NCBI RefSeq assembly: GCF_000183545.2
Contig: NZ_JH976535.1
Coordinates: forward strand, 696,840 to 760,839
Direction of reading: 5' to 3'
From: Thermaerobacter subterraneus DSM 13965
Lineage (GTDB): Bacteria > Bacillota > Sulfobacillia > Thermaerobacterales > Thermaerobacteraceae
DNA length: 64,000 nt
Below the pieces are notes generated by a model. It saw only the letters and a list, made by a program, of their open reading frames with translations, did not search any database and was not told where the DNA came from. How positions within the stretch are numbered: the first letter of the stretch is position 1; every line of letters begins with the position of its first letter. Positions 39,722 to 56,922 of this stretch are shown in pieces. Position numbers and translations under genes: made by a program.

Positions 39722-39825
39722 GCGCGCAGAACGTGCTTAAGGACCTTCCCCGTCGCGTTGCGGGGCAACTGGTCCATCACATGCAGCTGCTTGGGGATCT
39801 TGAAACGGGCCAGCTTCCGTTACCT

Positions 39826-39869
39826 GAAACATCGTCATCTGTTTCAGGCAGCCGATCCTTGCGGATCGG
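39826..39869 (-). repeat. Right-end hairpins of IS copy 1 (probable omega-RNA 3' part)
   Basis: Hairpin A (39852-39869) has a 7-bp stem CCGATCC/GGATCGG with a GCAA tetraloop. Hairpin B (39826-39845) has GAAACA/TGTTTC arms. They follow the tnpB stop within 12 bases. In characterised TnpB elements such as ISDra2, this position is the scaffold end of the guide RNA, with the guide read from the flanking DNA. Assignment is by position and structure only. Confidence 0.45.
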
Positions 39870-39880
39870 CGGTGCCGGTC

Positions 39881-41170
39881 TTACCCGGCCATGCGCCGGT
39901 GCCGGTTTCCCGCTTCCTCCGGGATCGCCTGCCTTGCGGCAGGTCTTCCATCCCGTCCACGGGCGTTTTCCGTCTCCGGACCACTCCCGGCGACAGCGGC
40001 CGCCAGGGCCGCGAGATTGCGGGCTGCGTTTTCGTCCCGGTCGAGCACGAGCCCGCATTCCTCACAGCGGAAAACGCGCTGCGAAAGCGGCAGCGACGGC
40101 TTGACCGCACCGCACCGGGAACAACGCTTGCTGCTGGGATCGAAGGGCGGCGCTTCGACCAGGACCGCCCCGTGCCAGGGACACTTGTAGCTGAGCTGGC
40201 GGCGGATCTCCGCCAGGGCCGCATCGGCCAGCACCCGGGCCAGCCGCCGGTTCTTCAGCATGCCCGCCACGTGCAGTTGTTCAACCACCACCACGCCGTA
40301 GGTGCTCGCGAGGTGGTGTGTCAGCTTGTGAAGGGCATCCTGGCGGAGGTTCCGGGCCCGCGCATGGAGCCGGGCCAGCCGGCGGCGGGCCTTTTGCCAC
40401 CCCCGGCTGCCCTTCTGGCGGCGGGCCAGGGCGCGGTTCCACCGGGCGATCTTCCGGAGGGCTTTCTCAAGCGGCCGCGGGTTCGGCCACACCTCGCCCG
40501 TCGAAAGGACCGCCAGGTGCTTGACGCCCGCATCGACGCCGACGACCTTCCAGGGGAACCGGGGCCGGCCCGGCGGCCGTTCCACCTCGCAGGTGAAGCT
40601 GACGAACCACCGGCCCCCTTCCCGGGCGACCGTGGCGGACAGGATGCGAGCCGTTCCCGCTTCGATGCGCCGGAGCAGGGCCGTGGCCGGCTCGTGGGTC
40701 TTCACCCGCCCGATCCGGGGCAGGACGACGTGGCTTTGGTCGTCCACCCGGATCGCGCCGGTGGTGAACCGCACCGACTCCCGCCCTCGGCCCTTCTTCC
40801 GGAACCGGGGGAACCCCACCCGGCGCCCCTTGCGTTCACCCTTGCGGCTTTTGGACCAGTTCTGCAGGGCCCGGGCCAGCCCGTCCAGCCCGGAGGAATA
40901 GGCTTCCTTCGAGTTCTCCCGCCACCAGGGGGCGACGAGGTGCTTTTGCCGGTTCCACTCCCGCCGCAGGGCCGGAAGGGTCCATGGCACCTCCACATCC
41001 TCGCCCCGGTCGCGGGCGGCCAACCGTTCCTTCACCAGCACCAAACCCCAGTTGAAGGCAAAGCGGCGGGCGCCCACGTGGGAGGCCAGCGCCCGTTCCT
41101 GGCGGGGTGTGGGGTCGAGGGCAAAGCGGTACGCCTGCAACACACGCACGGGCAGGCCCCCCAAAATCAT
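39881..41170 (-). CDS. tnpB: TnpB, RNA-guided endonuclease-type IS605 OrfB (copy 1, intact)
   Basis: 429 aa with an N-terminal helical domain starting LQAYRFALDPTPRQE, and a RuvC-like nuclease with D213 (GVDAGVKHLAVL), E297 (VVVEQLHV) and D379 (LDRDENAARNL). The four-Cys zinc ribbon C350-x2-C353...C369-x2-C372 lies between. All catalytic residues are present. The ATG at 41170 lies only about 9 bases from the -10, so a downstream GTG (codon 8 or 10) is likelier to be used. TnpB proteins cut target DNA guided by an RNA from the element's right end and promote retention of the element. Confidence 0.93.
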   Translation of the reverse strand: MILGGLPVRVLQAYRFALDPTPRQERALASHVGARRFAFNWGLVLVKERLAARDRGEDVEVPWTLPALRREWNRQKHLVAPWWRENSKEAYSSGLDGLARALQNWSKSRKGERKGRRVGFPRFRKKGRGRESVRFTTGAIRVDDQSHVVLPRIGRVKTHEPATALLRRIEAGTARILSATVAREGGRWFVSFTCEVERPPGRPRFPWKVVGVDAGVKHLAVLSTGEVWPNPRPLEKALRKIARWNRALARRQKGSRGWQKARRRLARLHARARNLRQDALHKLTHHLASTYGVVVVEQLHVAGMLKNRRLARVLADAALAEIRRQLSYKCPWHGAVLVEAPPFDPSSKRCSRCGAVKPSLPLSQRVFRCEECGLVLDRDENAARNLAALAAAVAGSGPETENARGRDGRPAARQAIPEEAGNRHRRMAG

Positions 41171-41178
41171 CCAAGGAC

Positions 41179-41207
41179 AGCATATCAGAACATATGTTCC
41201 GTGTCAA
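41179..41207 (-). promoter_or_regulatory. tnpB promoter with LexA/SOS-like box (copy 1)
   Basis: On the minus strand: TTGACA (41202-41207), a 17-base spacer and TATGCT (41179-41184). The spacer contains GAACATATGTTC (41188-41199), a perfect palindrome that matches the Gram-positive LexA (DinR) consensus GAAC-N4-GTTC. A repressor bound there would occlude RNA polymerase. Confidence 0.6.
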
Positions 41208-42315
41208 AGAGTGCGGCCGAGGAGCGAAGGGAGGAGATGCGAAGATTTGATGACGTTGGGCGAGAAATGATAAGAAACGCATTAGCTGTTCTCAGCCCCT
41301 CGAGGAAGCGGAAGCCGCGGGACTGGAAGAACTGGATCACGGTGAGCGGGCAGGGGGCACCTCCGGAGACCAGGCTCCGCAGGCTGGCCAGGTCGTAGCG
41401 ATCGAAGCCGGGAAGCCACATCAAGGCCTGCCACATGGCCGGCACCAGGAACAGCACCGTGATCCGTTCCCGTTCTACCAGCTCCAGGGTCCGCCGCGGG
41501 TCGAACTGGCGCTCTAGCACCACCGTGCAGCCCTTGAACAGGGCCGGCAGGGTGTAGACGCTCAGCCCGCCGATGTGGAACATGGGTGCCACCGTCAGCA
41601 CCACGTCCCGGGTCTCCAGTCCTTCCTCGTTGAGGAGCATGTTCACGGCGTTCCACACCGAGTTGCTGTGGGTAAGGACCGCCCCCTTGGGCCGCCCGGT
41701 GGTGCCGGAGGTGTACATCATGAGATGCGGGTCAAAAAAGCTGACCTGGGCTTCAGGCTCGCCGGCGGCCGGCAAGTGGGGTTCCAGGAGGGCCTCATAC
41801 TGCAACGGCTGGCTCTCGGCCGAAGCGGGCGGGTTCGTGCCGGCGACGGGGCCGTCCCTTGCCTCGACCCGGGCCCGGACCGCCGTGCCGGCTACGGCGT
41901 GCCGGGCAAGCGGCTCGAGGAGAGCGTCGTAGTACAGCACGCAAGCCCCCGAGTCCGACAGGATGAACTGGACCTCCGGCGGCGCCAGCCGCAGGTTGAT
42001 GGGCACGGCAATGGCGCCCAGCTTGGCGGCGGCAAAGAGCACCTCCAGGAACTCGCAGCGGTTGGGCATCAGGATGGCCACCCGGTCGCCCTTCCTCACC
42101 CCCAGCCCAGACAGGGCGTGGGCCAGGGCGTTGACCCGGCGGTTCAGGTCGCGGTAAGTGAAGCGCCGGGGCCCGTCGACCACCGCCACCTTGTCCGGGT
42201 ACAGCAGGGCCGCCCGGGCGAGCAGGTCGCCCACCCGGGGCGGCTCCATGACCACCCCACCCGACACGTACGCCCCCATGATCGCACCCCCATGCGATCC
42301 AAGACGATCCTGGTG

Positions 42316-54846: not shown

Positions 54847-55246
54847 GGTCGTGAGGGATCGGGGTACGGCTCAGATCAACGGGATGGTCAAATGGTAGGC
54901 TATCGCCGCACCGGATGCCAGCCTTGACCCTTGCCCGGATTGCCGCGGACCGGCTGCCGGGGGATGCGCAGCGGGGAGGAGGGGCTACAATGGGCGAGCG
55001 CTTGCGGGATGTGGTCGCAAGCTACTACCAGCGGGTCGACGCCGGGGATCTGGAGGGCTTGCTGGGGCTGTTCCATCCGGAGGTCCGCTACGAGCGGGGC
55101 GGTCGGGACCCCGTTGAGGGGATCGACGCCCTGCGCCGCTTCTTCGAGGGGGAGCGGGCTGAGAACAGCTAATGCGTTTCTTATCATTTCTCGCCCAACG
55201 TCATCAAATCTTCGCATCTCCTCCCTCCGCTCCTCGGCCGCACTCT

Positions 55247-55275
55247 TTGACACGGAACATATGTTCTGGTATGCT
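55247..55275 (+). promoter_or_regulatory. tnpB promoter with LexA/SOS-like box (copy 2)
   Basis: TTGACA (55247-55252), 17-base spacer, TATGCT (55270-55275). The spacer contains GAACATATGTTC at 55255-55266, conserved in both element copies although the bases just after the box differ (TGA versus TGG). Confidence 0.6.
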
Positions 55276-55283
55276 GTCCTTGG

Positions 55284-56573
55284 ATGATTTTGGGGGGCCT
55301 GCCCGTGCGTGTGTTGCAGGCGTACCGTTTCGCCCTCGACCCCACACCCCGCCAGGAACGGGCGCTGGCCTCCCACGTGGGCGCCCGCCGCTTCGCCTTC
55401 AACTGGGGTCTGGCTCTGGTGAAGGAGCGCCTGGAAGCCCGCGACCGGAGCGAGGATGTGGAGGTGCCGTGGACCCTTCCCGCCCTGCGGCGGGAGTGGA
55501 ACCGGCAAAAGCACCTCGTCGCCCCTTGGTGGCGGGAGAACTCGAAGGAAGCCTACTCCTCGGGGCTGGACGGGCTGGCCCGGGCCCTGCAGAACTGGTC
55601 CAAAAGCCGCAAGGGTGAACGCAAGGGGCGCCGGGTGGGGTTCCCCCGGTTCCGGAAGAAGGGCCGAGGGCGGGAGTCGGTGCGGTTCACCACCGGCGCG
55701 ATCCGGGTGGACGACCAAAGCCACGTCGTCCTGCCCCGGATCGGGCGGGTGAAGACCCACGAGCCGGCCACGGCCCTGCTCCGGCGCATCGAAGCGGGAA
55801 CGGCCCGCATCCTGTCCGCCACGGTCGCCCGAGAAGGGGGCCGGTGGTTCGTCAGCTTCACCTGCGAGGTGGAGCGGCCGCCGGGCCGGCCCCGGTTCCC
55901 CTGGCGGGTGGTGGGCGTGGACGCGGGGGTGAAGCACCTGGCGGTCCTTTCGACGGGCGAGAAGTGGCCGAACCCCCGGTCCCTTGAAAAAGCGCTCCGA
56001 AAGATCGCCCGAACGAGCCGCGCCCTGGCCCGCCGCCAGAAGGGCAGCCGGGGGTGGCAAAAGGCCCGCCGCCGGCTGGCCCGGCTCCATGCGCGGGCCC
56101 GGAATATCCGCCAAGATGCCCTTCACAAGCTGACACACCACCTCGCGAGCACCTACGGCGTGGTGGTGGTTGAACAACTGCACGTGGCGGGCATGCTGAA
56201 GAACCGGCGGCTGGCCCGGGTGCTGGCCGATGCGGCCCTGGCGGAGATCCGCCGCCAGCTCAGGTATAAGTGTCCCTGGCACGGGGCGGTTCTGGTCGAA
56301 GCGCCGCCCTTCGATCCCAGCAGCAAGCGTTGCTCGCGGTGCGGTGCGGTCAAGCCATCGCTACCGCTTTCGCAGCGCGTTTTCCGCTGTGAGGAATGCG
56401 GGCTCGTGCTCGACCGGGACGAAAACGCGGCCCGCAATCTCGCGGCCCTGGTGGCCGCCGTCGCCGGGAGTGGTCCGGAGACGGAAAACGCCCGTGGACG
56501 GGATGGAAGGCCTGCCGCAAGGCAGGCGATCCCGAAGGAAGCGGGAAGCCGGCACCGGCGCATGGCCGGGTAA
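55284..56573 (+). CDS. tnpB: TnpB, RNA-guided endonuclease-type IS605 OrfB (copy 2, intact)
   Basis: 429 aa, differing from copy 1 by about 13 residues counted by eye (for example LALVKERLEARDRS, EKWPNPRSLE, ARTSRAL). The RuvC triad D213, E297, D379 and all four zinc-ribbon Cys are retained, so both copies look functional. As in copy 1, the ATG lies very close to the -10, and an internal GTG is the likely start. Confidence 0.93.
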   Translation: MILGGLPVRVLQAYRFALDPTPRQERALASHVGARRFAFNWGLALVKERLEARDRSEDVEVPWTLPALRREWNRQKHLVAPWWRENSKEAYSSGLDGLARALQNWSKSRKGERKGRRVGFPRFRKKGRGRESVRFTTGAIRVDDQSHVVLPRIGRVKTHEPATALLRRIEAGTARILSATVAREGGRWFVSFTCEVERPPGRPRFPWRVVGVDAGVKHLAVLSTGEKWPNPRSLEKALRKIARTSRALARRQKGSRGWQKARRRLARLHARARNIRQDALHKLTHHLASTYGVVVVEQLHVAGMLKNRRLARVLADAALAEIRRQLRYKCPWHGAVLVEAPPFDPSSKRCSRCGAVKPSLPLSQRVFRCEECGLVLDRDENAARNLAALVAAVAGSGPETENARGRDGRPAARQAIPKEAGSRHRRMAG

Positions 56574-56584
56574 GACCGGCACCG

Positions 56585-56628
56585 CCGATCCGCAAGGATC
56601 GGCTGCCCGAAACAGATGACGATGTTTC
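56585..56628 (+). repeat. Right-end hairpins of IS copy 2 (probable omega-RNA 3' part)
   Basis: CCGATCC-GCAA-GGATCGG (56585-56602) and GAAACA/TGTTTC (56609-56614/56623-56628), identical to copy 1 except for one base between them. A guide transcribed onward would be copied from the NTF2-like gene, starting near 56637. Confidence 0.45.
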
Positions 56629-56922
56629 AGGTAACGGTCATCCAGGAAGGCCGCCACCAGCTGGACGCCATCCTGGTCGAGGGCGAGCAGGTGGCGGTCC
56701 GGGGCGTGTTCCGGGGTGTCCTCAAGACGGGGGAAGAAGTGACCGTCCGGTTTGCCGACTTCCATCATTTCCGCGACGGCTTGATCTGGCGCCGTTACAG
56801 CTACTTCATGGATCGCTTCGTGTAGGCACGCGACCCGGGACTGAGGCGCCGCGAACCAACGGCACCGGCAGGAGGGGAAGCCGCAGGGACCCCTCCGGAG
56901 ACGGCCATCAAGGGGGCGGGCC

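What the first reader, a model, noticed from the sequence alone, without database searches (positions are those of the whole stretch)
55164..56636. Empty site of the TnpB element can be read from the split NTF2-like gene
Joining GCTGAG with GTAACG restores a continuous SnoaL-like protein, giving element ends and a candidate insertion context (CTGAG on the left). The right-end hairpins would be followed by a guide copied from the NTF2-like gene, so the target and target-adjacent motif of this TnpB can be predicted from one locus.
Basis: partly seen in the sequence, partly recalled or inferred. Interest (0 to 1): 0.55.

Follow-up and report, generated by a model that had tools for sequence, protein, structure and literature searches.

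The report
IS607-type jumping gene with readable empty site

Summary
The SnoaL/NTF2-like gene really is split by a TnpB element, and an intact copy exists in a related species (G003), so the empty site can be read directly. The true left flank ends ...GAGCGGG (55158) and the right flank starts TCATCC (56638). The element is 55159-56637 (1479 bp) and shares a GG with the target, with no target duplication. TnpB fits the IS607 TnpB family, and the right end holds a known Rfam RNA (RF03015). In four genomes of the genus, 20 of 22 recognisable left ends lie after GGG. The predicted TAM is therefore GGG, with the guide starting TCATCC. That equals the measured TAM of the IS607 element ISXfa1. The element lacks tnpA, and no IS607 tnpA is found in this genome; a sister species has six. 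Verdict: a new member of a known kind. One oddity: at 2 of 8 tested sites the element lies between two GGG sites whose intervening 340-495 bp are missing.

The parts
54990..55158 (+). 5' piece of the split SnoaL/NTF2-like gene, ending in the target motif GGG
   Evidence: contiguous with the 3' piece in G003, G001 and G002; joined protein 113 of 118 identical to the intact G003 protein; intact G003 protein hits PF12680, PF07366, PF13577 and PF02136
55156..55158 (+). GGG: insertion motif and predicted target-adjacent motif; 55157-55158 is the GG crossover pair counted on the left
   Evidence: G before GG in 20 of 20 left ends that carry the GG; GGG also in the empty site of G003
55159..56637 (+). 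the element (GG counted on the right), tnpB-only, 1479 bp
   Evidence: alignment of copies and empty sites
55159..55316 (+). left end of the tnpB-only form (CTGAGAACAGC...); shared with autonomous copies only at the terminal motif and a short ACATATGT stretch
55308..56573 (+). tnpB, IS607-type, 421 aa from GTG (429 aa from ATG 55284); start codon not settled
   Evidence: NF038280 520 bits against cut-off 350; Pfam OrfB_IS605, Cas12f1-like_TNB, HTH_OrfB_IS605; aligns with solved ISDra2 TnpB, D-E-D residues kept
56538..56607 (+). Transposase-2 RNA (RF03015): core of the guide-RNA scaffold
   Evidence: 79.4 bits against gathering 42.7
56606..56631 (+). terminal hairpin of the right end, before GTAACGG; one stem pair broken in this copy
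   Evidence: folds (z -5.1 for 56485-56637); pairs listed
56636..56637 (+). GG crossover pair on the right
   Evidence: all 32 right ends detected end in ACGG
56638..56657 (+). predicted guide (first 20 nt of the right flank, TCATCC...)
   Evidence: position after the right end; by analogy with ISXfa1 in PMC10711439
56638..56825 (+). 3' piece of the split SnoaL/NTF2-like gene (ends at the stop of ORF 56616-56825)
   Evidence: PF12680 hit, continuity in congeners
39817..41295 (-). second full copy of the element in the window, 96% identical, inside an acyl-AMP-ligase-like gene (name from the reading frame, no family search run); 495 bp of that gene missing

Best explanation
This is a tnpB-only element of the IS607 type. 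A serine transposase supplied from elsewhere recombined the element's GG ends with a GG inside the sequence GAGCGGG|TCATCC of a SnoaL/NTF2-like gene, leaving the gene in two pieces with no bases lost or duplicated. TnpB with a guide RNA made from the right end (RF03015 core, terminal hairpin, AACGG end) would recognise target DNA with GGG followed by the first 16-20 nt of the right flank, that is, the empty site, and cut it, which favours keeping the element. Shown: the split, the exact ends, the empty site, the GGG preference, the TnpB family and its catalytic residues, the RNA family, absence of an IS607 tnpA match in this genome. Inferred: movement by a TnpA in trans or by a lost tnpA, guide RNA expression, GGG as the TAM, and cutting of the empty site.
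For: Empty site: G003 reads GAGCGGGTCATT with no gap, 94% over 150 nt. Three more gap-free empty sites for other copies: c1949 in G003 (263 of 264 nt), G001_1344a in G003 and G000 (96% and 94%), G003_2471 in G000 (97%). G before GG in 20 of 20 left ends that carry the GG, against 0.29 expected before a GG in this window. All 32 right ends found in the 40 stretches examined end in ACGG. NF038280 at 520 bits. RF03015 in the window, in 15 of 20 further stretches of the genus and in 10 of 20 relatives elsewhere, each of those 10 followed by AACGG. Published: IS607 crosses over at GG and prefers (G)GG (PMC6188088, passages); ISXfa1 TnpB TAM is GGG and the right-flanking nucleotide is scaffold (PMC10711439, section 25 and legend passages).
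Against: The empty site of G003_2471 in G000 reads AG where the model needs GG; a later G-to-A change is assumed. G001_1732 aligns with gaps near the junction and G001_2675 has no usable empty site. Two flank pairs (c736, c1114) are not adjacent in congeners. Two identical tnpA-bearing copies on contig C2 of G001 lack the GG at the left. No RNA or cleavage data exist here. This copy has a base change that breaks one pair of the terminal hairpin.
Confidence: 0.93

Rival explanations
1. One reading: ends at GCTGAG / GTAACG, with CTGAG as the insertion context, as in an IS200/IS605-type element placed behind a short motif.
For: That join also keeps the reading frame.
Against: It leaves 12 bases that no intact homologue has. 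CTGAG lies inside the conserved left end and GTAAC inside the conserved right end of many copies. TnpB scores 520 bits with the IS607 model against 252 bits with the IS200/IS605 model, under that model's cut-off of 425.
Confidence: 0.01
2. The GGG is only the insertion preference of the serine transposase; the TnpB may need a longer or different TAM.
For: IS607 TnpA itself prefers (G)GG (PMC6188088). The base before GGG is also skewed here (G 16, A 3, C 1 of 20). RAGATH-18-linked IS607 TnpBs use AGGAG or GAGGG (PMC11061315, passages).
Against: The measured TAM of ISXfa1 TnpB is GGG (PMC10711439); the insertion motif and TAM must agree for the nuclease to cut its own empty site (inference).
Confidence: 0.25
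3. The element is dead in this genome: no transposase, and TnpB no longer cuts anything.
For: No IS607 TnpA match in G000 at E <= 1e-3. Several copies are truncated.
Against: tnpB is open with D, E and D motifs in this copy and several others; the c1949 insertion has flanks 263 of 264 identical to the empty site in G003, so movement was recent.
Confidence: 0.3

Closest known systems
ISXfa1 (IS607 family, Xylella fastidiosa), PMC10711439
   Same: IS607-type TnpB, GG crossover, GGG next to the guide, right-end guide RNA that runs past the element boundary
   Different: This element has no tnpA; the match of the TAM is predicted from insertion sites, not measured. Sequence identity to ISXfa1 was not computed.
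IS607 (Helicobacter pylori) and IS1535, PMC6188088
   Same: insertion at (G)GG, no target duplication
   Different: those carry tnpA; tnpB-only form here
RF03015 Transposase-2 RNA (Rfam)
   Same: the right end scores 79.4 bits against a gathering score of 42.7
   Different: the Rfam model covers the core only; the terminal hairpin and AACGG end lie outside it
ISFba1 and other RAGATH-18-linked IS607 TnpBs, PMC11061315
   Same: IS607 TnpB with a right-end guide RNA
   Different: TAM AGGAG or GAGGG, another RNA family (RAGATH-18 did not reach E 1 here)
ISDra2 TnpB (IS200/IS605), solved structures 8bf8, 8exa, 8ex9
   Same: TnpB relatives by sequence, D-E-D residues aligned
   Different: IS605 family with a Y1 transposase and TTGAT TAM (recalled)

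Membership tests
IS607-type TnpB | match to the IS607 TnpB model above its cut-off | tested here: met
   NF038280, 520.5 bits against 350
IS607-type TnpB | RuvC D-E-D residues and zinc-ribbon cysteines | tested here: met
   aligned to ISDra2 TnpB 8bf8; sequence
IS607 transposon family | GG at both ends, insertion at a target GG, no target duplication | tested here: met
   window empty site in G003 and three other gap-free empty sites, one with AG in the empty allele
IS607 transposon family | tnpA serine recombinase in the element | tested here: not met
   none in this element and no NF033518 match in G000; six tnpA genes over cut-off lie beside related tnpB copies in G001. So this is a tnpB-only derivative with IS607-type ends, not an autonomous IS607 element.
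IS607 transposon family | circular intermediate and TnpA-catalysed exchange | not testable with these tools
   needs experiment
TnpB guide RNA (reRNA / omega RNA) | conserved structured RNA at the right end ending at the element boundary | tested here: met
   RF03015 hit, fold z -5.1, 32 of 32 right ends found end in ACGG
RNA-guided nuclease with GGG TAM | guide-directed cutting next to GGG | not testable with these tools
   only predicted from insertion sites
IS200/IS605 TnpB | match to the IS200/IS605 TnpB model above its cut-off | tested here: not met
   NF038281, 252 bits against 425

The most novel reading that the evidence does not exclude
IS607-type elements in this genus generate deletions of target DNA that run precisely from one GGG to another. 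In two of eight copies examined against congeners (c736, 495 bp missing; c1114, 340 bp missing), the left end abuts one GGG and the right flank is the sequence behind a second GGG in the same gene, with both element ends exact. This would fit one-ended exchange by the serine transposase between an element-flank GG and a nearby GG, or two nearby insertions followed by recombination.
Probability: 0.25. Interest if true: 0.45.

Novelty: new member of a known kind. Interest (0 to 1): 0.25.

Why it matters
It gives exact ends, a native target and a predicted TAM for one element family from sequence alone, and agrees with the GGG TAM measured for ISXfa1, so it supports reading IS607 TnpB TAMs from insertion sites in this RF03015-linked group. 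It also shows that an open reading frame across a proposed junction is not proof of the ends: a 12-base error kept the frame. If the GGG-to-GGG deletions hold up, IS607 elements would have a further way of removing genes.

Tried and rejected
Rejected: CTGAG as the insertion context and GCTGAG|GTAACG as the junction. Rejected: IS200/IS605 membership. Considered: a TnpB-made deletion for c736 and c1114; the sequence behind the left GGG of c736 does not resemble its present guide, so a guide-directed cut there is unlikely; in c1114 the two sites are alike for about ten bases behind GGGGG, so it is not excluded. Also considered: ordinary slippage between short direct repeats; the two sites share 7 nt (c736) and 5 nt (c1114) up to the breakpoint, so this is a real rival, though it does not explain why a breakpoint sits exactly at the element end in both.

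Rows dropped: of 24 left-end pattern matches, four (c1218, G003_2123, G001_2128, G001_1531) were dropped as chance because their BLAST matches do not reach the left end; two of those four have G before GG and two have C. One second right-end pattern match in G003_971 was dropped.

Led nowhere: genus guess Thermaerobacter (recalled, no call supports it; one search covered the name, listing only). A Pfam scan of TnpA with wrong coordinates was not repeated for that protein. Three of the ten paper searches and the structure prediction tools were not used.

Full report
What is there. The window is G000:C1:696840-760839 of a two-contig genome of 2.89 Mb. At 55159-56637 lies a 1479-bp element with one gene, tnpB. 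It interrupts a SnoaL/NTF2-like gene whose 5' piece ends at 55158 and whose 3' piece starts at 56638. The 3' piece alone hits PF12680; the intact homologue in G003 hits PF12680, PF07366, PF13577 and PF02136.

The empty site. The two flanks were searched in the four held genomes of the genus. The left flank has matches in G003 and G002, the right flank in G003, G001 and G002, besides the window itself. In G003 the two are contiguous: GAGCGGG followed by TCATT, 94% identical over 150 nt with no gap. The orthologues in G001 and G002 are more diverged but also uninterrupted, with no gap at the junction. The window therefore reads GAGC-GGG|element|TCATCC, with GG present at both element borders (55157-55158 and 56636-56637).

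GCTGAG (55158-55163) joined to GTAACG (56631-56636) leaves 12 element bases. The frame stays open because 12 is divisible by three, but the protein is 122 aa with four residues that the intact protein lacks; the correct join gives 118 aa, 113 of 118 identical to G003. The left motif is GGG, not CTGAG.

Ends from many copies. The element has 17 matches in G000, 29 in G001, 6 in G002 and 8 in G003, many of them fragments. Forty stretches were collected (14 from G000 including the window, 26 from the other three). Thirty-two hold a right end, and all 32 end in ACGG. A left-end pattern gave 24 matches, four of which were dropped as chance (see Tried and rejected); all 20 others have G before GG, and the base before that is G 16, A 3, C 1. 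The chance of G before a GG in this window is 0.287. Two further left ends, identical copies on contig C2 of G001, lack the GG.

More empty sites. Eight of the 18 copies with both ends were tested against congeners. Four are gap-free: the window copy; c1949 in G003, 263 of 264 nt; G001_1344a in G003 and G000; G003_2471 in G000, where the empty allele has AG instead of GG. G001_1732 aligns with gaps near the junction and G001_2675 gave no usable empty site. The other two, c1114 and c736, have flanks that are not adjacent in congeners: 340 bp lie between them in G003 and G001 (c1114), and 495 bp in G003 (c736).

What it is. TnpB matches NF038280 (IS607 TnpB) at 520.5 bits against a cut-off of 350, and NF038281 (IS200/IS605 TnpB) at 252 against 425. 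It aligns with solved ISDra2 TnpB over residues 9-404, with the D, E and D columns kept. The right end contains Rfam RF03015, 79.4 bits against 42.7; RF03015 also occurs in 15 of 20 other stretches of the genus and in 10 of 20 relatives from other taxa (20 of the 56 loci were given), each of the 10 followed by AACGG. The last 153 nt fold at -77.6 kcal/mol, z -5.1 against shuffles.

No transposase in this genome. NF033518 (IS607 TnpA) has no match in G000, G002 or G003 at E <= 1e-3, and eight matches in G001, six over cut-off. Those six lie beside tnpB copies that match the window element only from position 159 on. Their left ends share only the terminal stretch and a short ACATATGT stretch with the tnpB-only form (one autonomous copy compared by BLAST). 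A tree of 1321 shared bases mixes tnpA-bearing and tnpB-only copies: three label changes in the tree and in the bootstrap range, though deep branches are weak and one origin is not ruled out by the well-supported branches. This fits tnpB-only elements that share their tnpB and right end with tnpA-bearing ones.

How it works. Published work: IS607 exchanges at GG and prefers (G)GG (PMC6188088, passages); circular intermediate and GG overlap (PMC4058570, passages); ISXfa1 TnpB uses GGG as TAM, and the right-flanking nucleotide belongs to the scaffold (PMC10711439, section 25 and passages). By the same logic this TnpB should look for GGG followed by TCATCC..., which is the empty site. This last step is inferred.

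The deletions. In c736 the left site is CTCGAAGGG and the right site TGCGAAGGG in G003; in c1114 both are GGGGG. GGG precedes 12 of 615 positions in the c736 interval and 24 of 460 in the c1114 interval. The sites share 7 and 5 nt up to the breakpoint, so repeat-mediated loss is possible. In the listing of a search for IS607, TnpB and 'adjacent deletion' none of the ten papers shown (of 34) holds that phrase; one search listed ten of 17 papers, of which PMC6188088 and PMC5358919 were read in passages only, and those passages describe no such deletions. I do not claim that they are unreported.

Verdict. Ordinary in kind, with a useful correction: a new tnpB-only IS607-type element, predicted TAM GGG.

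Noticed in passing
window 39817-41295 (-) and G000:C1:1114185-1115658 (L023): Two full copies whose flanks are 495 bp and 340 bp apart in congeners; both breakpoints lie at GGG with element ends exact.
   Followed up: partly
G000:C1:474183-474332 (L167): Empty site of the G003_2471 copy reads AG where GG is expected.
   Followed up: partly
G000:C1:1665507-1665714 (L031) and G003:C1:935571-935779 (L079): Old solo right ends in two species with similar right flanks, upstream of what looks like an endonuclease III gene in G000 (recalled from the reading, not searched).
   Followed up: partly
G000:C1:1353835-1353919 (L032), G000:C2:206764-207218 (L028), G000:C1:1218420-1219040 (L027), G001:C1:2128321-2128417 (L081): Truncated copies that keep an intact-looking right end and flank, so they could supply guide RNAs in trans to TnpB from full copies.
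   Followed up: no
L071 606-675 and 2129-2515: In G003 an element copy lies close to the RNase P RNA gene (RF00010).
   Followed up: no
L025 (G000:C1:786852-788280): Copy c786 has lost the loop of the terminal hairpin of its right end and the first 38 bases of its left end.
   Followed up: no
G001:C2:14556-15876 and 66240-67560 (L074, L073): Two copies with identical element sequence and the same flank on a 78-kb contig, lacking the GG at the left end.
   Followed up: no
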